A DNA stretch of 24,317 nt, taken from IMG/VR virus record IMGVR_UViG_3300010413_000178, positions 1 through 24,317 of that record; one strand, 5' to 3'. Source of the DNA: a virus. Each line of letters opens with the position of its first letter. Position 1 is the first letter of the stretch. Shown here in pieces: positions 3,901 to 22,491 of the stretch. A program made the translations under genes and the position numbers. A model generated the notes under the pieces. It saw only the letters and a program-made list of their open reading frames with translations, was not told where the DNA came from and searched no databases.

Positions 3901-4943
3901 TCACGGACGATTATGCGATCTATCTTGACGATTGTCTGGAGGTGATGCCGACGCTGCCCGATGGGTCGGTTCATTTCTCTATCTATAGCCCACCATTCGC
4001 GGGTCTGTACCACTACAGCAGCAGCCCCCGCGACCTGAGCAATAGCCGCAGCTACCCGGAATTTCTGGAGCATTACAATTACGTCATCGCCGAGATCGCG
4101 CGACTGACGATGCCAGGCCGCATCACGGCCGTACATTGTATGGATATCCCCCAGAGCAACACCGGTCGCGGCGACGCCCTGATGGATTTCCCTGGTGACA
4201 TCATTGCGCTACATTGCCAGTGCAAAGATCCAAATTGCGCCGCTCCCCACCTCGAACGATATAAGGGGCTATGTGGGCATGGTGAATGGGAATACAACGC
4301 CCGCTACCACGTCTGGAAAGAGCCCCTCGCCGTCCGTAATCGCACGATGGCAAAAAAGCTCAATCATTCCACCATCGTCGAGGATAGCTCCAAGTGCGGC
4401 GTGGCCAGCGCGGATTACCTGCTCTGCTTCCGACGCAAAGGGGAAAATCCCGAGCCTATCGAGCACCCGAATGGATTGCTAGAATACGCCGGCGAGCGCA
4501 CGCCCCCTCCCGAACTGCTCAAATACAAGGGATGGACGGGCAATCAGATCGAGAATCAATACTCACATTGGATCTGGAGGCAATACGCCAGCGCGTTCTG
4601 GGATGATGTTCGGATCGATCGCGTATTACCCTTTCAGGAATCGCGCGAGGATGAGGATGAGAAACACGTGCATCCTCTCCAATTAGATACAATCGAGCGC
4701 GCCTTAGTGCTCTGGTCGAATCCCGGCGATACGGTATTAACCCCGTTTATGGGAGTCGGATCCGAGGTGTATGCCGCTGTACGTCTTGGGCGCAGAGGCG
4801 TCGGCGTCGAGCTGAAAGAAACGTATTTTAGGCAAGCGTGCAAAAATCTTGAGGCCGTAGACAAAGCAACGGTTACGACGCCCACGTTGTTCGATTGGGC
4901 AATGATGAAAAACGAGAGAACCGAGCCCCAGGCTACCACCTAA
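3879..4943 (+). CDS. Site-specific DNA methyltransferase (beta class, N6-A or N4-C)
   Basis: This 354-aa protein has catalytic motif IV YSPPF (36-40) near the N terminus and AdoMet motif I TPFMGVGSEV (288-297) near the C terminus. The IV-before-I order defines beta-class amino methyltransferases. SPPF does not decide between adenine and cytosine as the target. The central region AVRNRTMAKKLNHSTIVEDSS and YLLCFRRKGENPEPIEH matches phage-type methyltransferases I know. A Cys/His-rich segment at 112-134 (H112, C113, C115, C120, H124, C132, H134) looks like a metal-binding insertion. No restriction endonuclease is nearby, so it is probably an orphan enzyme protecting phage DNA or acting with the helicase. 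Confidence 0.88.
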   Translation: MDTKRQVITDDYAIYLDDCLEVMPTLPDGSVHFSIYSPPFAGLYHYSSSPRDLSNSRSYPEFLEHYNYVIAEIARLTMPGRITAVHCMDIPQSNTGRGDALMDFPGDIIALHCQCKDPNCAAPHLERYKGLCGHGEWEYNARYHVWKEPLAVRNRTMAKKLNHSTIVEDSSKCGVASADYLLCFRRKGENPEPIEHPNGLLEYAGERTPPPELLKYKGWTGNQIENQYSHWIWRQYASAFWDDVRIDRVLPFQESREDEDEKHVHPLQLDTIERALVLWSNPGDTVLTPFMGVGSEVYAAVRLGRRGVGVELKETYFRQACKNLEAVDKATVTTPTLFDWAMMKNERTEPQATT

Positions 4944-5080
4944 GCTCGGTCCTCCTCCCTGGTGGACGCCCGGTCGGCGTGGCCCTTTCCCACACCCGCC
5001 CCGCCGGCCCGGGCCACCACTAACAGTATAGCACAAAAGTTCACTAAACGTCAATAGGGTGTGGAAGAAATGAAAAAACG
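4944..5080. other. Intergenic region with hairpins between two early operons
   Basis: GCTCGGT (4944-4950) pairs with ACCGAGC (4920-4926) across the methyltransferase stop. ACGCC-cggtc-GGCGT (4966-4980) and GTGGCCC(4979-4985)/GGGCCAC(5011-5017) follow. None is followed by a T-run. A weak -10-like TATAGC lies at about 5027 with no clear -35. This is a likely operon boundary with unproven control elements. Confidence 0.35.
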
Positions 5081-8895: not shown

Positions 8896-8909
8896 GTTTG
8901 CGCGCAAAC
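8896..8909. promoter_or_regulatory. parS-like 14-bp palindrome before the ParB-like gene
   Basis: GTTTGCGCGCAAAC is a perfect palindrome 22 bp before the ParB-like start. Its outer GTTT/AAAC matches canonical chromosomal parS (GTTTCACGTGAAAC), with only the central six bases different. The core TTGCGCGCAAACA recurs after the gene. Confidence 0.65.
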
Positions 8910-8931: not shown

Positions 8932-10692
8932 ATGATCATCATCCCGCTCCATCACATACACCCCAACCCCTGGCAAACCCGCCAGCGGGTGGACAAGACC
9001 CAGGTCGCCGAGCTCGCCGCCGACATCGTCAGCCGTAAAGCGGCCCGCCCCGAAACCCGCGGCCTGCTCCAGCTCCCCGCCGGCCGTCCCATCGACGCGG
9101 CCGGAAACCCGCTTAATGCCTGGATGCCCGGCGCCCACGTGCAGCTCGTCTATGGCCACAACCGCCTCGCCGCTTTCCACCTGCTCTCCGAGAATGACGA
9201 GGATTATCTCTACCTGCCTGTCGAGATCGTCCAATTCGATGATCAGGAAATGGCCACCGCCGCCTGGGCCGAAAACGCCCAGCGCAGCGATCTCACTCCC
9301 ATCGAGGAGGCCGAGGCCATCCAGCGGATGATCGAGGCCTTCGGCTGGACCCAGGCCCAGGCCGGCGACCATCTCGGCCTCTCCCGCCCTACCGTCTCCA
9401 ACAAACTCCGCCTCCTCAAACTCGACGACGCGGGCCGCCAGGCCGTCCTGGAGGGCCAGATCACCGAGCGCCAGGCTATGGCTATCCTGCCTGTGTTCGA
9501 TCTCCCTGCGCCGGCATTCGAGCGCGCCAAAAATAAAGACGGCTGGTTAAAAACCGACGACCTGGTCCAATGGGCCTTGGAGGGCCAATCCTCCGATTAT
9601 CTCCGCGGCCGTGCCGACGTCCTCGTTCGCTACTCTACCAAACATCTCGACCGCGACAACAAGCACGACGACCCCCCCTTCCCCCTCGATCACCTGTTCG
9701 AGGAGCTCCCCCTCGTCAACGAAGTCGCATCTGGCGGGATCCAGTCCCCCCGCTGCGACAACTGCCCCATCCGCGTCAAATACGGCCAATTCTACCGCTG
9801 CCCCGACTTTGACTGTTACGACGCCAAGGCCGCCACCTGGATCGCCGCCCGCCTCGCCGAGGCCTCCGCCATCCTGGGGATCTCCGTGGCTGATGACGAC
9901 GAATCGACAGCCTGGGAAGTAGAAAAAGGCTTTGGAGATGAGGACCTCGATCTCGTCTCAGAGATCGTCATCGAGGACGGCTGTAAGCGCGGCTGCCTCC
10001 GCCTCCGTTTCAACCGCAGCGATTACGCCTACCATCCCGCCGGCTTCGACGACATCGCCGTCGTCTGTCATCACGGTAAAGATGCCAACCGCTGCCATTG
10101 CCTCGCCGCCAAAAAGGGCCAGCAGACCCGCGAGGAAACTTTTAGAGAATCGAGGGATCGACTCGCGAAGGAGATCGAGAAAAAGATCAAGAATCCTGTC
10201 GCCGGTTTGTTGTCCACGTCTTTGGCCAGCAATCACCGCGGCGCGTGGATCGTCCTGCTCCGTGCGATGGCGATCGGATACAAGAAAGACGATATTAAAG
10301 AGTGGACGCTCCAACAGATTCAAGACAAGATCGCCCACAGGATGATCTGGAATCTGATGGGCTATTACAGCACATTCGAGGCTGCCCAAACCGACGTCAG
10401 CAAGATCCTCGCCGATGCCGGCCTCCCCGCTCCCTGGCAGTGCGACACTGCCGCCGACATCCTCCAGACCAAACTCGAACGAATCGCCGGCTGGTTCGCC
10501 ACCGAGGAGCTCCCCACTTCCGAGGCCGTCCAGGGCAACATCGACAACCTGGAGAAACTCGCCGATCAACTGGAGGACCTGGACGGCGACCACGCCGGCC
10601 TCGCCGAGGCCATCGCCGCCCTGCGAAATGAGCTGGAGGAGCTCCGAACGGAGCTCCAGATCGACCTATTCGAAGGCCACCTGGAGGACTAA
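8932..10692 (+). CDS. ParB-like partition protein with extra Cys-rich domains
   Basis: This 586-aa protein begins with a ParB/Spo0J core. It has the CTP-binding-type motif VYGHNRLAAF (73-82; canonical form GxRR), the ENxQR-type motif ENAQRSDLTPIEEAEA (114-129) and a helix-turn-helix WTQAQAGDHLGLSRPTVSNK (139-158). About 400 further residues follow, with two Cys/His clusters (C275, C278, C290, C295; and C351, C355, C379 to C390) and an acidic, Leu-rich helical end. Typical ParB is about 300 aa, so this is a long form. No ParA is in the window. It starts behind AGGAG. The parS-like palindromes on both sides suggest autoregulation, partition or both. Confidence 0.85.
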   Translation: MIIIPLHHIHPNPWQTRQRVDKTQVAELAADIVSRKAARPETRGLLQLPAGRPIDAAGNPLNAWMPGAHVQLVYGHNRLAAFHLLSENDEDYLYLPVEIVQFDDQEMATAAWAENAQRSDLTPIEEAEAIQRMIEAFGWTQAQAGDHLGLSRPTVSNKLRLLKLDDAGRQAVLEGQITERQAMAILPVFDLPAPAFERAKNKDGWLKTDDLVQWALEGQSSDYLRGRADVLVRYSTKHLDRDNKHDDPPFPLDHLFEELPLVNEVASGGIQSPRCDNCPIRVKYGQFYRCPDFDCYDAKAATWIAARLAEASAILGISVADDDESTAWEVEKGFGDEDLDLVSEIVIEDGCKRGCLRLRFNRSDYAYHPAGFDDIAVVCHHGKDANRCHCLAAKKGQQTREETFRESRDRLAKEIEKKIKNPVAGLLSTSLASNHRGAWIVLLRAMAIGYKKDDIKEWTLQQIQDKIAHRMIWNLMGYYSTFEAAQTDVSKILADAGLPAPWQCDTAADILQTKLERIAGWFATEELPTSEAVQGNIDNLEKLADQLEDLDGDHAGLAEAIAALRNELEELRTELQIDLFEGHLED

Positions 10693-10697
10693 TAGAA

Positions 10698-10730
10698 CAA
10701 CCGTACTAATCCAACGGTTGCGCGCAAACA
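10698..10730. promoter_or_regulatory. Second ParB-type palindrome overlapping a hairpin
   Basis: CAACCGT (10698-10704) and ACGGTTG (10714-10720) form a 7-bp hairpin 6 nt after the ParB stop. Overlapping it, TTGCGCGCAA (10718-10727) repeats the palindrome core found before the gene, and 13 bp (TTGCGCGCAAACA) are identical. It may be a second ParB site; the hairpin lacks a T-run, so it is a doubtful terminator. Confidence 0.5.
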
Positions 10731-15716: not shown

Positions 15717-16598
15717 CTAAATCCCAATGTACCGATTATAATACCTGAGATACACCGTCGTCGCCGCCGTCGCTGCGCTCCCCGTCACCTGGATATCATT
15801 CGGCTTATTCGCCGCGCTCCCCATCGGCGCCTCCAGGTGGAACGTTGCCAGGTCGCTGTCGCTCGTCAGGTCCGCGATCGTGTTCGCCTCATCCGAGTCC
15901 ACCACCGTCTTGAACCCCCATCGACAATCGATATCGTAATAATCCCCCGCGTCGATCGTCGTCCCGCTGAAATCGATCTTTTCGTCCGTCGTGAGATTCT
16001 GTACCTTCGGGCTCGTGATCGGCCCCACGATCCGGATGAACGGGAATGTCCGCCAGCTCCCCGTGTAGTAAATCGTCTGAGTTACGTCAAGCGTGCTCGC
16101 ACCCACAGATAGCGGCACCTCCATCGGCACCTCGAAAGCGCCCCCGCCGGCCCCCAGCGCGAAAATCTCTACATCCGCATCCGGGTCGTAAAACGTCGGA
16201 TCCGGCGCCACCATCGTCACCGCCAGCACCTGGTTAAACCCCTTCAGCCCGTCCGTCCCCATCCCCAGGTCCGCGCTATAATGCGCGTCGATCTGGCGCA
16301 CGCTCCCATCGTCGAACGTCCACCGCAACTGTAGCGCGTCGTCCAGCGGCCGGAACAAACGCAGGATCCCATCCCGCTCCTCGTACACGTCCGCCAGGTC
16401 CGTCGCCTCGATGATGAAAAACAGCCGGAACACCCGCGGGTCCAGCCGGAACCCCAGGTCCGTCGCCCCATGCTGCGCCGGGCCTCGCTCCGTCAGCCGG
16501 TGCAGCGGCGCCATCCCCAGCCCGTCGTGACCCGTGTACCGGTACAACGAGGCCAGATCGTAACTCACGTCACTAACAATCAGCGTCGGCGTCGCCAT
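15717..16598 (-). CDS. Distal tail protein (Dit-like)
   Basis: This 293-aa protein comes directly after the tape measure gene, where siphoviruses encode Dit. The N-terminal half contains LFFIIEATDLADVYEERDGI and LRLFRPLDDALQLRWTFDDG, then VRQIDAHYSADLGMG, resembling the Sipho_tail family (a strand-rich ring domain). The phrase VTMVAPDPTFYDP is typical of the same family. The C-terminal half is beta-rich (galectin-like in known Dit proteins). It should form the ring joining the tail tube to the fibre and hub. The ribosome binding sequence falls in an ACAGGAT repeat unit. Confidence 0.75.
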   Translation of the reverse strand: MATPTLIVSDVSYDLASLYRYTGHDGLGMAPLHRLTERGPAQHGATDLGFRLDPRVFRLFFIIEATDLADVYEERDGILRLFRPLDDALQLRWTFDDGSVRQIDAHYSADLGMGTDGLKGFNQVLAVTMVAPDPTFYDPDADVEIFALGAGGGAFEVPMEVPLSVGASTLDVTQTIYYTGSWRTFPFIRIVGPITSPKVQNLTTDEKIDFSGTTIDAGDYYDIDCRWGFKTVVDSDEANTIADLTSDSDLATFHLEAPMGSAANKPNDIQVTGSAATAATTVYLRYYNRYIGI

Positions 16599-16604
16599 CC
16601 CTAG

Positions 16605-16675
16605 TTATCCTGTAAATCCTGTTAATCCTGTCAAGACCTGGTTTTCTCCGCGCTCCCTGCGCTCTCCGCGGTAAA
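16605..16675. repeat. Intergenic repeat, TCCTGTAAATCCTGTTAA plus TCTCCGCGCTCCCTGCG families
   Basis: Three 9-bp units of the atcctgtaa/atcctgtta type are followed by the ctccgcgctccctgcgctct family. Read on the minus strand, the first family supplies AGGA upstream of the distal tail gene start. Confidence 0.85.
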
Positions 16676-18553
16676 TCATCCGTACAACTGCGCCAGCATC
16701 CGCATATCGTCCACCAGGCTCGCCTCGCTCTGCACGTTGCGATAATGCGCGTCCACCGTCACGTTAACCTGGCGCCCGATACTCGTCCCCCCACCGCCCG
16801 CGCCCACGCCCGCCATCGTTCCCATCGTCGCCCAGTCCATCCGCATCTCCCGCAGCGCGTCACTCACCCCGCGGATCCCGATCTCCAGCGGCGTCGCGCT
16901 CCCTGGGATCAACCAGTCCGGGATGTGAATGCTCGGTAGCTTGATCTCCGGCACCTTGATCGAGCCCAGCGCGTCGGTGACTTTTCTGGCATACTCGATG
17001 ATCTTCTCCAGCACATCCACCACCATCTGGATCGCGCCCCTGATCTTCTCCCAGATCGGCTTGCCTGTTTGATTCCACCACCGCACCACCGTCGCGAATG
17101 CGTCCGGGATCTTGTCAGAAAGCCAGCCCACGAACCGCTCGATGATGGGGATTACCGGGTCCTGGATGAACCCCCACAGCGCCGACAGTGCCGGCTTTAG
17201 CGCGTTCTCCCACACCCCTTTTACCATCCGCATTGCCCGCGGCACGTTCGTGTTCAGCCAATTAAACAACTTTTCGATGATCGGGATCACCGGGTCCTTG
17301 ATAAACTCCCACAATGCCGTCAGCGCCGGCTTCAGCACCGAGTTCCACACATCTTGCGCCGCCGTCATCGCCTCCGGGATCCGGTCCTCGACCCAGCTCA
17401 CGAACTTCTCTAACCAGGGGATCACCGGATCCTGGATGAACTGCCATAGCGCCTCCAGCGCCGGCTTCAGCACCGAATTCCAGATATCCCGCGCCGTCTG
17501 CATCGCCTTCGGCACGTTCTCCTGCAGCCATCCCACCAGCTTCTCGATCCACGGGATTACCGGATTCTGGATGAACGCCGCCACGGCCTCCAATGCCGGC
17601 TTTAGCGTCCCACTCCAGAATCCCGCCACCGTGCTCATCGCCCCCGGCAGATTCTTTGACAACCACGACACCAGATCACCGATCGCCGGCACGACCTTAT
17701 CCTGGATCCACGGCACCACCTCGCTCTTGAATACCTCGATCAATATCGGGAGGTACTGCTGCGCCAGGCTCAAAACCCCCTGCATCAGTTCGTTCCACAC
17801 CGGCAACAAAGCGACCCCGATCGCGTCCTTTGTGTCCTGCAATTGCGCGCTCAGCGCCGCCTGCGCCTGCGCCGCCGTCCCCGCCACCTCCGGCATCGCC
17901 GCCGTGTTCTCCTGCAGCTTCTCCAGCACGACGTTCATCATCCCGGCTTGCGTCTGCGCCTTCGTCAGCTCCCCCGCCTCGACGCCGAACATCTCGCTCG
18001 CCCGGGCCGTCGCATCACTCAAGGCGACCTGGATCCCCAGATTGTCCAGGATCATCGGCGATAACCTTCCAACGCCGGTGATTAAGGAATCAATCATAAA
18101 CCCCATATCTTGCCCGGTCGCCGCCGAGACCTTGCTCAAATATGACATCGCGTCCGGCAGATTCTGGGCGAAATCGATCCCCACGAGCTGGGCCGCCTTA
18201 TTGAACCCCATCATCAGCTCGGTCTGGTTCACCATCCCCAGCGACCCCTCTTTCAAAGCCGCCAGCATATCCGCCGAGCCCCCCTCGATCGTGCTCGTCA
18301 GCCCTTCGAACGCGTCCGTTACCCCCTGCACCTTGCCCGCGTTACTGGCCAGCTTCACCAGCCCCACGCCCAGGCCCACCGCGCCCGCGGCCGCGCCGGC
18401 GAACCCCACCGCCGCCACCTTGCCCAGCGCGCCGAACCCGCCTTTCAGCTTCCCCACCACGCCCGACGCAAACCCGGCGGATTTCTCCATATCATTCCGG
18501 AAATCCGAGCTATCCGCCGTCAGCTTAACCACCAGGCTCGCTAAAGTCGCCAC
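16676..18553 (-). CDS. Tail tape measure protein with four 45-aa repeats
   Basis: This 625-aa protein has a typical tape-measure N terminus (LVVKLTADSSDFRNDMEKS), a hydrophobic Gly/Ala stretch (about 46-72) and a phage-minor-tail-type region (100-250). Four tandem 45-aa repeats follow (311-490), each with W..LKPAL.ALW.FI.DPVIP..EK...WL, and a degenerate one before them. A Gly-rich end follows. It sets tail length and is expelled into the host at infection. It starts at GTG behind AGGGAT, where an ACAGGAT intergenic repeat supplies the upstream AGGA. It is short for a tape measure. The Trp-rich repeat unit is not the usual 11- or 13-aa period. Confidence 0.88.
   Translation of the reverse strand: MATLASLVVKLTADSSDFRNDMEKSAGFASGVVGKLKGGFGALGKVAAVGFAGAAAGAVGLGVGLVKLASNAGKVQGVTDAFEGLTSTIEGGSADMLAALKEGSLGMVNQTELMMGFNKAAQLVGIDFAQNLPDAMSYLSKVSAATGQDMGFMIDSLITGVGRLSPMILDNLGIQVALSDATARASEMFGVEAGELTKAQTQAGMMNVVLEKLQENTAAMPEVAGTAAQAQAALSAQLQDTKDAIGVALLPVWNELMQGVLSLAQQYLPILIEVFKSEVVPWIQDKVVPAIGDLVSWLSKNLPGAMSTVAGFWSGTLKPALEAVAAFIQNPVIPWIEKLVGWLQENVPKAMQTARDIWNSVLKPALEALWQFIQDPVIPWLEKFVSWVEDRIPEAMTAAQDVWNSVLKPALTALWEFIKDPVIPIIEKLFNWLNTNVPRAMRMVKGVWENALKPALSALWGFIQDPVIPIIERFVGWLSDKIPDAFATVVRWWNQTGKPIWEKIRGAIQMVVDVLEKIIEYARKVTDALGSIKVPEIKLPSIHIPDWLIPGSATPLEIGIRGVSDALREMRMDWATMGTMAGVGAGGGGTSIGRQVNVTVDAHYRNVQSEASLVDDMRMLAQLYG
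17084..17623 (-). repeat. Four 135-bp tandem repeats in the tape measure gene
   Basis: The units run 17623-17489, 17488-17354, 17353-17219 and 17218-17084, encoding residues 311-355, 356-400, 401-445 and 446-490. The protein is conserved between units, while third positions vary, so the copies are not a very recent expansion. Confidence 0.85.
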
Positions 18554-18559
18554 ATCCCT

Positions 18560-18626
18560 ATCCTGTAAATCCTGTTAATCCTGTCCAAAAAGATCCGCGT
18601 TCATCCGCGTGCATCTGCGGTTCTAA
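18560..18626. repeat. Intergenic repeat overlapping the 3' end of the chaperone G-T frame
   Basis: TCCTGTAAATCCTGTTAA units and CCGCGTTCATCCGCG units lie between the tape measure and chaperone genes. The last residues of the G-T product (RTADARG) and its stop codon are read from the repeat itself. Confidence 0.85.
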
Positions 18627-18936
18627 GATCCCTGCCCCCCATCGCCTTATTGATCTGCTCCACGATCGCCAATTGCTCCTCCCACGGCCGCGCCATGGGC
18701 ATCAGGTTATCGAAATCCGGCATAAAATCCGCCGGCTGGAACGCCCGCCGCCGCTTCTTTGGATCCCGCGCCGTGTTCGCGATCGCCGCCGCCACGATTC
18801 CCATCTGCAGGTCCCCACGCCGCCCGCCGAACGGCTCCATCCGTTCCACGATCATCCATTCCGTCAGCTCCCGGCTGCTGATCCTGGCCAGCAACTCGTC
18901 GACCGTGCATCCCAGCGCCAGAGCTAGGCGGAAGTA
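18601..18936 (-). CDS. Tail assembly chaperone, frameshifted T part (DUF4035-like)
   Basis: This frame has no need of its own start. It runs open from the proposed slip site and reads YFRLALALGCTVDELLARIS followed by SRELTEWMIVERMEPFGG, the classic C-terminal module of G-T chaperones. It lies exactly in the -1 frame relative to the preceding G gene, as in phage lambda. The fused product would be about 240 aa and would coat the tape measure during tail assembly. Position between tail tube and tape measure fits perfectly. An internal start near 18894 is possible but less likely. Confidence 0.82.
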   Translation of the reverse strand, partial: YFRLALALGCTVDELLARISSRELTEWMIVERMEPFGGRRGDLQMGIVAAAIANTARDPKKRRRAFQPADFMPDFDNLMPMARPWEEQLAIVEQINKAMGGRDLRTADARG

Positions 18937-19319
18937 AAACCGTCGCTCTGGCCGCCGGTTAAATTTTCCGCCAGCTCCTCGATGTCCTGATCACTCAGCC
19001 CGCTCAACCGCTGCGCCACGTCGAACACGCGATCCAGCGCCGCCGCACTTTTCAGCCCGAGCTGCCGCACGTCCTGATCGGTGAATAGCCGCTTCCCATC
19101 CTCATCGATGATCGTCAGCGCCGCCAGCTTCGCCCGCACGTTCCTGGTATCGACCTTCGATTGACGGCCATTCAGCGACACGATCGAGGCCTCGAACTGG
19201 TCCCGCTCCGCTCCCGTCAGGCCCCGCACCCGCACCGTGCCACCCCACTCCGGCACCTCCACGTCCTCGTATACCAGGTCCTCGGCCTGCAGGATCTGCT
19301 CCCTGCTCAATAATCCCAT
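18924..19319 (-). CDS. Tail assembly chaperone G
   Basis: The protein has 131 aa from ATG 19319, which follows GGAGGgtgat; the frame is open 12 bp further to 19331, but that start has no ribosome binding site. It begins MGLLSREQILQAEDLVYEDV, then VPEWGGTVRVRGLTGAERDQ, a typical start for siphovirus tail chaperones, and ends in a helical segment (LSGLSDQDIEELAENL). It precedes the tape measure and ends at TAG 18924 shortly after a TTTT slip site that allows -1 readthrough into the T frame. Confidence 0.82.
   Translation of the reverse strand: MGLLSREQILQAEDLVYEDVEVPEWGGTVRVRGLTGAERDQFEASIVSLNGRQSKVDTRNVRAKLAALTIIDEDGKRLFTDQDVRQLGLKSAAALDRVFDVAQRLSGLSDQDIEELAENLTGGQSDGFTSA
18934..18941 (-). 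promoter_or_regulatory. Probable -1 frameshift site (GGTTTTAC)
   Basis: In the G frame the codons are GGT TTT ACT, 10 nt before the stop. Phe-tRNA on TTT can re-pair with TTT after slipping back one base, which enters the T frame at TAC. The glycine codon would not re-pair, so this is not a classical X-XXY-YYZ heptamer. Confidence 0.55.
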
Positions 19320-19328
19320 ATCACCCTC

Positions 19329-19404
19329 CATCCGCGTTAATCCGCGTCCATCTGCGGTTACTGTTTTGGTTTTCTCCGCGCTCCCTGCGCTCTCCGCGGT
19401 AAAA
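19329..19404. repeat. Intergenic repeat, CCGCGTTAATCCGCG plus TCTCCGCGCTCCCTGCG families
   Basis: Nearly the whole gap between the tail tube and chaperone G genes is repeat. The second half (from gttttctccgcgctccctgc) is identical over more than 30 bp to the copy at 16640-16674. Confidence 0.88.
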
Positions 19405-19830
19405 CTACGCCAGCGTCGGTTGCCCGCTACCCGACAACGTCACGCTCGCCGTCAGCTTTCCCGCCACCGGCGCCCCCGGCTCGAACCCCGTCACGAATGC
19501 CGCAAATGCCCACGTGGTTGTGCCCGTATCCGGAAACACGAGCTGGAAATTCCGCAACGTCCGCGCCACCATATCCGCGATCAACCCCGTGCTCGCGTCG
19601 TGCGTCGCCCCGGCCGGATCGTACTGGATGGCAAAGCCGACCTCTCCCACATCCAGGATCGTCGCGATCCGCTCCATCCACCCGGCCGTGCTATCGTGGC
19701 TGGTCCCGTCCTCGGTATTCAGCGTCAACCCCGGCCCGGTGATGTCCAGCACCTCCGCGATCGTCGTGAAACTCTCCGGACTTCCACCATCGCCCGCCTT
19801 TAACAACGTCCCATAACTAGCGATACCCAT
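19405..19830 (-). CDS. Major tail tube protein
   Basis: This 141-aa protein begins MGIASYGTLLKAGDGGSPES, then TIAEVLDITGPGLTLNTEDG and later WMERIATILDVGEVGFAIQY, a pattern I recognise from siphovirus tail tube subunits. TLRNFQLVFPDTGTTTWAF and SVTLSGSGQPTLA complete the expected beta-rich fold. The start follows a strong GGAGGTG ribosome binding site, fitting an abundant protein. Its place upstream of the chaperones and tape measure supports the call. Confidence 0.85.
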   Translation of the reverse strand: MGIASYGTLLKAGDGGSPESFTTIAEVLDITGPGLTLNTEDGTSHDSTAGWMERIATILDVGEVGFAIQYDPAGATHDASTGLIADMVARTLRNFQLVFPDTGTTTWAFAAFVTGFEPGAPVAGKLTASVTLSGSGQPTLA

Positions 19831-19846
19831 CCTACACCTCCATAAT

Positions 19847-20209
19847 CTATAGGGGCAGTTTTACCACCCCAAACTTCACCGATGCGCTGCTCGCTTCAAA
19901 ATACAACTTTCCGTCCGTCTGCTCCCATCCCTCCAGATCAAACGGGCCAAACACCGCGTACTCGCCCCCGGCCAGGCTGTACGTCGTGATGTCCCCCGTC
20001 CGGCCCGCCGCGTCTGCCACCGAACTGATCGTCACCGTGTACCCGGTCCCGCCCGTGTTGTGCGCGATGATGATCTCCGCGCCGGTGAACGTCACCTGTT
20101 CTTTATTGGCCGCGTCGGCCGCCGTCATCGTCAGGTCGGCCGCGTTGGCTGTGTAGGCGTTAGTTTTCGTCCCCAGCGCCGTCAGCGGCGTGTGGCTCTG
20201 TCTGGCCAT
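19847..20209 (-). CDS. Small structural protein of the tail region
   Basis: This 120-aa protein is rich in Ala, Thr and Gly, with TMTAADAANKEQVTFTGAEI, then IIAHNTGGTGYTVTISSVAD, GRTGDI and GPFDLEGWEQTDGKLYFEAS. I recognise this pattern from small proteins near tail tube genes of siphoviruses; it looks like a single beta-sandwich. It could decorate the tail or head. It starts behind a purine-rich GGAGAGGGAGATAGAGG leader, inside the end of the preceding zinc-finger gene (50-bp overlap). Confidence 0.6.
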   Translation of the reverse strand: MARQSHTPLTALGTKTNAYTANAADLTMTAADAANKEQVTFTGAEIIIAHNTGGTGYTVTISSVADAAGRTGDITTYSLAGGEYAVFGPFDLEGWEQTDGKLYFEASSASVKFGVVKLPL

Positions 20210-20453
20210 CCTCTATCTCCCTCTCCACCTCGATCGGCTCCCCGCGCGCGTCCACGAACGGCAAACGTATCTTGGGTGGGGGCTTTGGGGCGTGATCGGC
20301 CTCGTAATGCCGCATCATTTCATCCACCCCCTCCAACGTGTCGAACCGACAAAATTTACATTGGAGCTGCGGTAACCCCTTCCACGAGCCCACTGTATAC
20401 GGCCGTTCATCCCCGTCCCATCTGCGTTTATCCGTGTTCATCTGCGGTTCCAT
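20160..20453 (-). CDS. Small C2H2 zinc-finger-like protein
   Basis: This 97-aa protein contains a C2H2-type signature CKFCRFDTLEGVDEMMRHYE followed by ADH (C-x2-C-x12-H-x4-H). The C-terminal third is acidic. The N-terminal residues EPQMNTDKRRWDGD are a direct translation of the intergenic repeat, so the start may have been captured from it, with ATG 20453 or ATG 20441 as the start. A GTG near the end of that segment is the alternative. Small zinc-finger proteins of this kind are common in phage tail operons, but their role is not known to me. Confidence 0.6.
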   Translation of the reverse strand: MEPQMNTDKRRWDGDERPYTVGSWKGLPQLQCKFCRFDTLEGVDEMMRHYEADHAPKPPPKIRLPFVDARGEPIEVEREIEDGQTEPHAADGAGDEN

Positions 20454-20462
20454 CTGCGGTCA
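20418..20462. repeat. Repeat captured into a coding start
   Basis: Units of the ATCTGCGTTTATCCGTGTTCATC type and a second shorter copy overlap the first 12 or so codons of the zinc-finger gene, and supply its ATG codons. Confidence 0.75.
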
Positions 20463-20849
20463 CTCCTGATACCAGATCAAATAATCCGCTCGCACCACCG
20501 GCTTCTCGAACACCGTCGACCAGATGTCGCTCTCATCGTCCAGGAAACACGCCCCCACCACCGTCGAGCCCCACGTCCCACTCTGCCCGTCCAGCGCTGC
20601 CCGCACCGCCTCGCTCACACCCTTCGCGCTCGAATAGCTGCTCCCGATGCACGTCACCTGCATCCGCGCGAACGCCAGCCCGCTCGGCCCGTCGTGCGCC
20701 GTCTCCCTGGGCCCCGAGATCCTTTGGTACGCAATCGCCGGCAGGCTCGCCTCTTGGGGCACCAGCAGCGGGTATACCCGCGTGCTCACCAGCGCCGTCA
20801 CGCCCGCCACCGCCTGCAGCCGGCTGTACAGCCCCTCCTCGATCGTCAT
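20460..20849 (-). CDS. Tail terminator / completion protein (DUF3168-like)
   Basis: This 129-aa protein reads MTIEEGLYSRLQAVAGVTAL, then RVYPLLVPQEASLPAIAYQR and later ARMQVTCIGSSYSSAKGVSE, the pattern of the DUF3168 family, which caps the tail tube at the head end. The start lies in an ATGA overlap with the gp10-like gene. The order connector, closure, gp10, DUF3168, tail tube is the standard HK97-type one. Confidence 0.85.
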   Translation of the reverse strand: MTIEEGLYSRLQAVAGVTALVSTRVYPLLVPQEASLPAIAYQRISGPRETAHDGPSGLAFARMQVTCIGSSYSSAKGVSEAVRAALDGQSGTWGSTVVGACFLDDESDIWSTVFEKPVVRADYLIWYQE

Positions 20850-21283
20850 CCCAGCGCCCTTTTCTTGATCACCGCCCCTGCTTCCTCCGCCGCGTTCTTT
20901 TTCTGGCTATCGAACGCCGGCCGCAGGAATGGTCGCGCCGCCATCCCCGGATGTCCCACCGCCCACGTCACGATAGTACCCTGGTCCCCCTCGAACACCA
21001 GCGGATCCCCCGTGATGTTGTGCGGCCCCGCCCCCGTCTCCAGATAGCGCCAGTACCACACCTCGTCCGGCATCCCCACATCGACGGTCACCTGCCCGGG
21101 CCTCCGCTCCGCCGTCTCCGTCTTGATCAGCCGCCGCGGCGCCTTCGCATTCGCCATCTCCGCGATCATCTGGGCCCCGGCCGTCGCCGCCGCCTCCAGC
21201 ACCTGCTCCACGTCCACCCCCAGCTTCTTCAGCTTGGCGATCAGCTCCGGCCCCCCCTCCACCTCCACCTTCACCCGCGGCAT
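20846..21283 (-). CDS. HK97 gp10-like head-tail protein
   Basis: This 145-aa protein begins with VEVEGGPELIAKLKKLGVDV and has AAATAGAQMIAEMANAKAPR, then VWYWRYLETGAGPHNITG and MAARPFLRPAFDSQKKNAAE, the recognisable core of the HK97 gp10 family. It acts at the head-tail joint. The start follows AGGGAAAGGGAAAA. Its stop overlaps the DUF3168 start. Confidence 0.87.
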   Translation of the reverse strand: MPRVKVEVEGGPELIAKLKKLGVDVEQVLEAAATAGAQMIAEMANAKAPRRLIKTETAERRPGQVTVDVGMPDEVWYWRYLETGAGPHNITGDPLVFEGDQGTIVTWAVGHPGMAARPFLRPAFDSQKKNAAEEAGAVIKKRALG

Positions 21284-21297
21284 TTTTCCCTTTCCCT

Positions 21298-21330
21298 ATC
21301 TGCGTTAATCCGCGTCCATCTGCGGTTAAA
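21298..21330. repeat. Intergenic repeat supplying the head closure stop codon
   Basis: A unit reading tctgcgttaatccgcgtcc and a following ctgcggttaaa lie between the closure and gp10-like genes. The TAA stop of the closure gene is part of the repeat. Confidence 0.8.
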
Positions 21331-21643
21331 GCACCTCGCGACAGTACAAATTCAACTCGCGGTCCCGATTATCCACGTTGATCACCGCCAGGATATCGTA
21401 AATGTTATCCCCCTCCGTCGCCCGCATCTCCGGCACCACCCCGCTCCGATACCTTAGCACGATCTTGGTCGACACCTCCGCCCCGGCGAAACTGACATCC
21501 TCGAACTCCCGCCCCCGTACCGGCTCCACCGACCCCCACACCGTGGCCACGTCCGACCACGTCACCACCTCCTCGCCGAAAGTGTTCCTGGTGACCGCCT
21601 TTTCCTGTATCGTAACCCTATGCCTTAATCTGCCTGCTCTCAA
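21326..21643 (-). CDS. Head closure protein (Phage_H_T_join, SPP1 gp16 type)
   Basis: This 105-aa protein begins MRAGRLRHRVTIQEKAVTRN and continues TFGEEVVTWSDVATVWGSVE and VRGREFEDVSFAGAEVSTKI, the classic head-tail joining pattern. It closes the head after packaging. The start is TTG, behind GGGGAACG. The stop codon lies in an intergenic repeat. Upstream is the gap that carries the opposite-strand RNA gene. Confidence 0.88.
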   Translation of the reverse strand: MRAGRLRHRVTIQEKAVTRNTFGEEVVTWSDVATVWGSVEPVRGREFEDVSFAGAEVSTKIVLRYRSGVVPEMRATEGDNIYDILAVINVDNRDRELNLYCREVL

Positions 21644-21678
21644 CGTTCCCCCTGCTCACAAGGGATCGCCAGATCCCG

Positions 21679-21732
21679 CCATCCGCGTTCATCCGCGGTT
21701 CCAAAATCCAAAATCACAAATCCAAAATCCTT
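21679..21732. repeat. Intergenic repeat next to the opposite-strand RNA gene
   Basis: CCGCGTTCATCCGCGG and CCAAAATC family units end about 10 bp before the TTGACA of the RNA gene promoter. Confidence 0.8.
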
Positions 21733-21741
21733 AGTGTACTC

Positions 21742-21771
21742 TTGACAATATCAGTACAAATGTGCTACAAT
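21742..21771 (+). promoter_or_regulatory. Near-consensus sigma-70 promoter of the opposite-strand RNA
   Basis: TTGACA (21742-21747), an 18-bp spacer and TACAAT (21766-21771), with a TGn extension directly before the -10. It is the best promoter sequence in the window. It points away from the late genes' direction, and no ORF with a ribosome binding site follows. Confidence 0.82.
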
Positions 21772-21777
21772 TAAAGC

Positions 21778-21871
21778 GGTTGGGGCGGGTCGAAGCGCCA
21801 CGGTGCCGGCCACACCGTTGGACCAGAGCGGAAAGATCCCCGGGCTGGAAGGCGCCTCCCGCCACTTTTTT
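21778..21871 (+). ncRNA. Predicted structured small RNA (three-way junction), unknown family
   Basis: Starting about 7 nt after the -10, a ~94-nt transcript would fold as follows. P1 is GGCGGG (21784-21789) with CCCGCC (21858-21863). P1b is GCGCC (21795-21799) with GGCGC (21851-21855). P2 is ACGGTG (21800-21805) with CACCGT (21813-21818), 7-nt loop. P3 is CCAG (21823-21826) with CTGG (21845-21848), extended past an AG/GG internal loop by CGG (21829-21831) with CCG (21840-21842). Six U (21866-21871) follow P1. Promoter, helices and U-run together look like a free-standing RNA gene. The gap contains no protein gene. I do not recognise the fold. Function could be antisense control of late mRNA, protein binding or another regulatory role; all are guesses. 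Confidence 0.72.
21858..21871 (+). terminator. 3' stem strand and U-run ending the small RNA
   Basis: CCCGCC, two bases, then TTTTTT. The stem is closed by pairing with GGCGGG at the 5' end of the RNA, so termination would use the whole folded transcript as its hairpin. Confidence 0.6.
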
Positions 21872-21890
21872 CCCCACCCCCATCCGCGTC

Positions 21891-21915
21891 CATCTGCGTT
21901 TATCCGCGGTTAAAA
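21891..21915. repeat. Intergenic repeat supplying the connector stop codon
   Basis: CCGCGTCCATCTGCG and TTTATCCGCGGTTAAAA units lie between the RNA gene and the gp6-type connector; the connector's TAA stop lies within them. Confidence 0.8.
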
Positions 21916-22491
21916 TCGCAACACCCGATAAGGCCACAACAAATACTCCGACCCCTGCGGGATCCGCTGGATATTCCCCACGCCCAGCGTGTCCTCGCGA
22001 TTCTCGTACCAGTGCCCGATCATCAGCAACATCGCCCTCCGGATCGCCTCGGGCACGTCCGAGGCCGCGCCGCCGTACCCCGCCACGAATCGCACCGTCA
22101 CCCCGTTGGCCACCCGCAGTGTATCACCGGGCCAGGTCGCCGTCGACTTGAGCACCACCCGCCCGGGCTCGCTATTGATATCGACCACGTAATCGCTACT
22201 CGAGACCGTACCCGTCGTCGCGTCCTGTTTGGTGTACGTGATTGACGTGACCGAGCGCAGCGGGGGCAGCGGGATCTCCAGGCGGTCCGTACCCGGGAAC
22301 GCGTCGAATATCCAGTCCCACGTCTGAGTGATCAGCGCCCGCCGCGTGATCGTCTCCGTCATCTGGCGCGCCGCCGTGATCAGCCCCAGGATCAGCTCGT
22401 CATCCGTCGTCACGTCCACCCGCAGGTGTGTTTTCGTCTCGATCAAACCCAGCGGCTCCACCGTCGCCGCCGTGTATATCGTCAGGCTCAT
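21910..22491 (-). CDS. Head-tail connector (HK97 gp6-like)
   Basis: This 193-aa protein begins YTAATVEPLGLIETKTHLRV, then DDELILGLITAARQMTETIT and RRALITQTWDWIFDAFPG, the pattern of the phiE125 gp8/HK97 gp6 connector family. IPLPPLRSVTSITYTK and the C-terminal IRRAMLLMIGHWYENRED fit as well. It forms the ring below the portal. The start ATG follows GGAG, which overlaps the previous stop (ttaGGAG). Confidence 0.88.
   Translation of the reverse strand: MSLTIYTAATVEPLGLIETKTHLRVDVTTDDELILGLITAARQMTETITRRALITQTWDWIFDAFPGTDRLEIPLPPLRSVTSITYTKQDATTGTVSSSDYVVDINSEPGRVVLKSTATWPGDTLRVANGVTVRFVAGYGGAASDVPEAIRRAMLLMIGHWYENREDTLGVGNIQRIPQGSEYLLWPYRVLRF

What the first reader, a model, noticed from the sequence alone, without database searches (positions are those of the whole stretch)
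21742..21871. Free-standing structured RNA with its own promoter, antisense to the late operon
Inside a run of tightly packed minus-strand head and tail genes, a 266-bp gap carries a near-consensus plus-strand promoter (TTGACA-N18-TGC TACAAT). It is followed by ~94 nt that fold by eye into a closing stem, a second helix and two hairpins around a three-way junction, then six U. No protein gene is present. Late phage operons rarely spare this space. Transcription from here would run against late transcription, so it could act in lysogeny, as an antisense regulator, or as a decoy. I know no family with this layout.
Basis: partly seen in the sequence, partly recalled or inferred. Interest (0 to 1): 0.85.

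Follow-up and report, generated by a model that had tools for sequence, protein, structure and literature searches.

The report
Antisense promoter and RNA, phage late operon

Summary
In detail: a 266-bp gene-free gap (21644-21909) between head-tail adaptor and head-closure genes carries an 11/12 sigma-70 promoter with extended -10 on the plus strand, a GC-rich ~94-nt stretch and six T. Shuffled windows essentially never give such a promoter. In the closest relative found (L002) the same gap keeps the promoter, same orientation and spacing (about 78% over 60 bp), while the RNA body is not recognisably conserved. The specific fold is not special: energy z = -0.18; 22% of shuffles give the same three-way-junction layout; L002 does not keep the fold or the U-run; Rfam has nothing. 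So 'structured RNA family' is not supported, 'antisense transcription unit' is. Two further units of the same kind turned up: one in the same window (minus strand, 5054->4906, z = -3.6, with terminator), one against the late genes of a related phage (L083, z = -6.2, 19-bp terminator). Best reading: a host-sigma-70-driven short antisense RNA or interference promoter opposing late transcription, comparable in layout to STnc6030 of Salmonella prophage BTP1. No transcript was seen; function is inferred. Interest moderate.

The parts
21742..21771 (+). sigma-70-type promoter, -35 TTGACA (21742-21747), 18-bp spacer ending in TGC (extended -10), -10 TACAAT (21766-21771)
   Evidence: conserved in L002 as TTGACA-18-TATACT with TGC
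21731..21790 (+). block conserved with L002 (about 78% over 60 bp): upstream bases, promoter, first about 13 nt of the RNA
21753..21766 (.). possible operator in the spacer, AGTACAAATGTGCT (imperfect palindrome; perfect AGCACAATTGTGCT in L002); a lead only
21778..21871 (+). predicted short non-coding antisense RNA, ending in T6 (21866-21871); start about 21778 inferred from the -10
   Evidence: fold not better than shuffles; body not significantly conserved
21671..21730 (+). dispersed repeat copy plus ATCCAAAATCC tract, between the promoter and the head-closure gene; absent from the L002 gap
21872..21911 (+). dispersed repeat copy overlapping the stop codon of the head-tail adaptor gene; absent from the L002 gap
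21326..21643 (-). head closure Hc1 gene, flanking
   Evidence: phrog_25, E 8e-28
21910..22491 (-). head-tail adaptor gene, flanking
   Evidence: phrog_442 E 3.4e-28, phrog_40
4906..5054 (-). second unit of the same make: TTGACG-18-TATACT with TGC before the -10 (5054-5025), about 113-nt GC-rich RNA (5018-4906) ending in a long hairpin and UCGUUUUU, antisense to the flanking plus-strand genes

Best explanation
The gap holds a small antisense transcription unit. A strong host-type sigma-70 promoter at 21742-21771 starts a short untranslated RNA near 21778 that runs against the late head/tail operon and stops near the T6 at 21871. Shown: promoter sequence far above chance, its conservation in position, orientation and spacing in L002, absence of a recognisable protein gene, and parallel promoter-plus-folded-RNA units in the same window and in related phage L083. 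Inferred: that it is transcribed by the host polymerase when the late operon is silent or just starting, and that it acts in cis, either by pairing with the late mRNA across the adaptor/closure junction (RNase cleavage or destabilisation) or by the two polymerases colliding, so lowering late gene expression or excluding a second phage of the same kind. A cis-antisense RNA stays complementary to its target whatever its sequence, which fits a conserved promoter with an unconserved body.
For: Promoter 11/12 with TG, none in 200 shuffles. L002 keeps TTGACA-18-TATACT with TGC at the same place within a 60-bp block at 78% while the RNA body is not significantly alike (p about 0.05). Both genomes keep a gene-free gap where almost all other relatives' genes abut. 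Two strong TG promoters in the window against 0.087 expected, both pointing against the flanking genes with no gene family downstream. In 16 related records (about 273 kb) a strict promoter pattern occurs once, again against late genes, in the gap before the tape-measure gene of L083, followed by a 146-nt RNA with z -6.2 and a 19-bp terminator hairpin. Precedent: STnc6030, an antisense RNA within the late genes of prophage BTP1 (PMC7067206).
Against: No transcript data. Only one relative shares the locus. The window fold is no better than chance, the T6 is not called as a terminator and is lost in L002. No integrase or known lysogeny repressor was identified in the window, so temperate life is unproven. 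No base-pairing target elsewhere in the phage stands out.
Confidence: 0.5

Rival explanations
1. A trans-acting structured sRNA (host-factor decoy, sRNA sponge or RNA anti-CRISPR) whose shape or short seed matters, expressed from the prophage as a moron-like RNA gene.
For: Own promoter and T6; sits at a mosaic boundary (90.6% identity to L002 on one side, 73% on the other), as morons do; the parallel RNAs at 4906-5018 and in L083 fold far better than shuffles.
Against: RNA body and fold not conserved in L002; window fold z -0.18; no Rfam match even at low threshold; the RNA bodies of the three units are not alike.
Confidence: 0.2
2. The conserved thing is a DNA site: an operator-bearing promoter or protein-binding site (palindrome AGYACAAWTGTGCT in the spacer), with the RNA only a by-product.
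For: Conservation covers the promoter and upstream bases and fades in the RNA; L002 has a perfect 14-bp palindrome in the spacer.
Against: The window's copy is imperfect (5 of 7 pairs), occurs once, and its right half overlaps the extended -10 motif that sigma-70 alone would conserve; no matching regulator identified.
Confidence: 0.15
3. Relic: a promoter left from a moron or rearrangement at a recombination joint, with no present function.
For: Gap lies exactly at the identity step between 90.6% and 73% segments, contains dispersed repeats on both sides, and the RNA body drifts freely.
Against: Hexamers, spacing, TG and 10 of 11 upstream bases are kept in L002 where the neighbouring gene has diverged to 73%.
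Confidence: 0.12
4. The promoter drives a small peptide gene.
For: GTG-started frames of 36 aa (window) and 44 aa (L002) follow the start site, and two indels in the hand-aligned 3' part are multiples of three.
Against: The two peptides have no detectable similarity, no family match, run into repeat or antisense of the adaptor gene, and lack a well-placed ribosome site in L002.
Confidence: 0.03

Closest known systems
STnc6030 antisense RNA of Salmonella prophage BTP1 (PMC7067206)
   Same: Untranslated RNA from its own start site inside the late structural operon, opposite strand; reported there as a superinfection-exclusion factor acting by pairing.
   Different: 786 nt and antisense to coding sequence (DNA-injection and tailspike genes); here about 94 nt and confined to a gap between genes; no sequence relation tested; no expression data here.
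OOP and aQ antisense RNAs of lambda; sas of P22 (reviewed in PMC12197685)
   Same: Short phage cis-antisense RNAs with own promoters.
   Different: Those oppose regulatory or exclusion genes (cII, Q, sieB), not a head/tail gene junction.
Moron-type insertions in phage late operons
   Same: Own promoter and terminator-like end, sits at a mosaic boundary between late genes.
   Different: Morons as usually described encode proteins (own knowledge); here no protein gene was found.

Membership tests
Phage cis-antisense RNA (STnc6030/OOP kind) | promoter on the strand opposite to the target transcript | tested here: met
   conserved in L002
Phage cis-antisense RNA (STnc6030/OOP kind) | no protein-coding gene in the transcript | tested here: met
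Phage cis-antisense RNA (STnc6030/OOP kind) | a transcript is made | not testable with these tools
   needs RNA-seq or Northern blot
Phage cis-antisense RNA (STnc6030/OOP kind) | it lowers expression of the overlapping mRNA or excludes superinfecting phage | not testable with these tools
   needs a host and genetics
   z -0.18; MFE as low in 43% of shuffles
   22% of shuffles
   only one homologous gap (L002); its fold differs, but two sequences are too few for a covariation test
Any Rfam family | covariance-model match | tested here: not met
tRNA/tmRNA | ARAGORN match | tested here: not met

The most novel reading that the evidence does not exclude
A group of uncultured phages places short, sigma-70-driven non-coding RNA genes, unrelated in sequence, in gaps of its operons and always against the flanking genes, as a general device by which host polymerase holds back phage transcription or excludes related phages.
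Probability: 0.2. Interest if true: 0.65.

Novelty: new member of a known kind. Interest (0 to 1): 0.4.

Why it matters
Few phages have strand-specific transcriptomes, so antisense units in late operons are known from a handful of model prophages. A case visible from sequence alone, with a conserved promoter and parallel units in the same and a related genome, suggests the arrangement recurs in uncultured phages and gives a simple search rule: strong promoter, opposite strand, gene-free gap, terminator.

Tried and rejected
Rfam at gathering and relaxed thresholds on this gap, the 4906-5054 unit and the L083 unit: nothing credible. BLAST of the element in phages and plasmids: only short promoter-like or chance matches, one inside a CpeT-like gene. 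Scans of viral contigs for promoter+G-rich start or promoter+operator: only L002, plus L114, a chance match inside the coding region of what looks like an RNA phage. One scan was wasted: I set the spacer too long, so it could not match even L002; its single hit (L115) lies inside a gene. The single host-genome scan gave only distant prophages, so the host is unknown. Homology between the RNA here, the 4906-5054 RNA and the L083 RNA: none significant. L083 RNA in 15 related records: none. Small-peptide reading: rejected. Trans base-pairing to phage translation starts: not above shuffles. Reverse promoter for the late sense in the same block: only weak hexamers at a 15-bp spacing, by eye.

Full report
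What is there. The window is a virus record of 24,317 bases: early-type genes on the plus strand (helicase, methyltransferase, FtsK-like, ParB-like) and tail/head genes on the minus strand. Between the head-tail adaptor gene (21910-22491) and the head-closure gene (21326-21643) lie 266 bases without a recognisable gene. On the plus strand they carry TTGACA-N18-TACAAT, with TGC before the -10, at 21742-21771, a GC-rich stretch and T6 at 21866-21871.

Is it more than chance? The promoter is: no site with >=11/12 hexamer matches and TG appeared in 200 dinucleotide shuffles of the window. The fold is not: -39.3 kcal/mol against a shuffle mean of -38.7 (z -0.18), and 22% of shuffles, and 17% of arbitrary 94-nt segments of the window, give a spanning stem with a three-way junction.

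Relatives. Of about 90 viral relatives of the two flanking genes, nearly all have the genes abutting or within about 60 bases; the longer spaces in L020 and L034 hold open frames that look like small genes. The nearest relative, L002 (adaptor protein 91% identical), has a 163-base gap with the promoter kept: TTGACA-N18-TATACT with TGC, same orientation. A 60-base block (21731-21790) is 78% identical; across the rest of the RNA similarity is at the edge of chance (p about 0.05). L002's fold differs and its T-run is missing. DNA identity to L002 is 90.6% from the adaptor gene outward and 73% from the closure gene onward, so the gap is a mosaic boundary. The spacer contains a perfect 14-base palindrome in L002 and an imperfect one here; part of it coincides with the extended -10 motif, so I list it only as a lead.

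Parallel units. A scan for strong promoters found one more in the window: minus strand, 5054-5025, TTGACG-N18-TATACT with TGC, in the 137-base gap between the plus-strand methyltransferase and HTH genes. It would give about 113 nt ending in a long hairpin and UCGUUUUU (-63.3 kcal/mol, z -3.56). Two such promoters are observed where 0.087 are expected. In late-operon relative L083 the gap before the tape-measure gene has TTGACT-N17-TATAAT with TGG against the late genes, followed by 146 nt (z -6.21) with a 19-base-pair hairpin and GUUUU. A strict version of this promoter occurs only there in 16 related records of about 273 kb. A possible small ORF follows the L083 hairpin, without a family match, so L083 could also be a leader. 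The RNA bodies are not homologous. These parallels were found after looking, so they support the arrangement rather than prove it.

Mechanism. What is kept between relatives is promoter, strand and place; what drifts is the RNA. A cis-antisense RNA, or plain collision with late transcription, predicts exactly this, because complementarity to the opposing transcript maintains itself. A shaped trans-acting RNA or decoy predicts the opposite. I therefore favour cis-antisense or interference (0.5), then a trans RNA (0.2), a DNA-binding site (0.15), a relic (0.12), a peptide (0.03). That the unit works in lysogeny is inference: no integrase or known repressor was identified here.

Known systems. 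Prophage BTP1 makes STnc6030, a 786-nt RNA opposite late genes, reported as a superinfection-exclusion factor (PMC7067206). Lambda OOP and aQ and P22 sas are other phage cis-antisense RNAs (PMC12197685). The present unit is like these in layout; membership in a functional sense cannot be tested without transcripts and a host.

Verdict. Observation partly confirmed, interpretation partly supported: a real conserved antisense promoter with a probable short RNA, not a demonstrated new RNA structure family.

Noticed in passing
window 4906-5054, minus strand: Second strong promoter followed by a GC-rich, well-folded RNA (z -3.56) with terminator-like end, opposite the flanking early genes.
   Followed up: partly
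L083 4426-4604, minus strand: Strong promoter against late genes, 146-nt RNA with z -6.21; alternative interlocking hairpins (GACTCGCGAAAG arms versus the 19-bp terminator) and a small ORF with a ribosome site after it: could be an attenuator leader.
   Followed up: partly
window 11080, 15675, 18593-18620, 19340, 20430, 21308, 21681, 21882: Dispersed repeat ATCCGCGTNCATCTGCGGTT, often with ATCCAAAATCC tracts, mostly just downstream of stop codons of late minus-strand genes, sometimes overlapping the stop; 9 copies against 0.06 expected.
   Followed up: partly
window 8896-8909 and 10716-10729: Palindrome GTTTGCGCGCAAAC (second copy one mismatch) on both sides of the ParB-like gene 8932-10692: candidate parS or operator sites.
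   Followed up: partly
window 21637-21911 versus L002: Abrupt identity step (90.6% to 73%) at the gap: a mosaic boundary between adjacent late genes.
   Followed up: yes
L081, end of contig: A contig 100% identical to window 16329-21698 stops at the dispersed repeat beside this gap, perhaps an assembly break at the repeat or strain variation.
   Followed up: no
window 17133-17672: Four 135-nt (45-codon) tandem repeats within the tape-measure gene.
   Followed up: no
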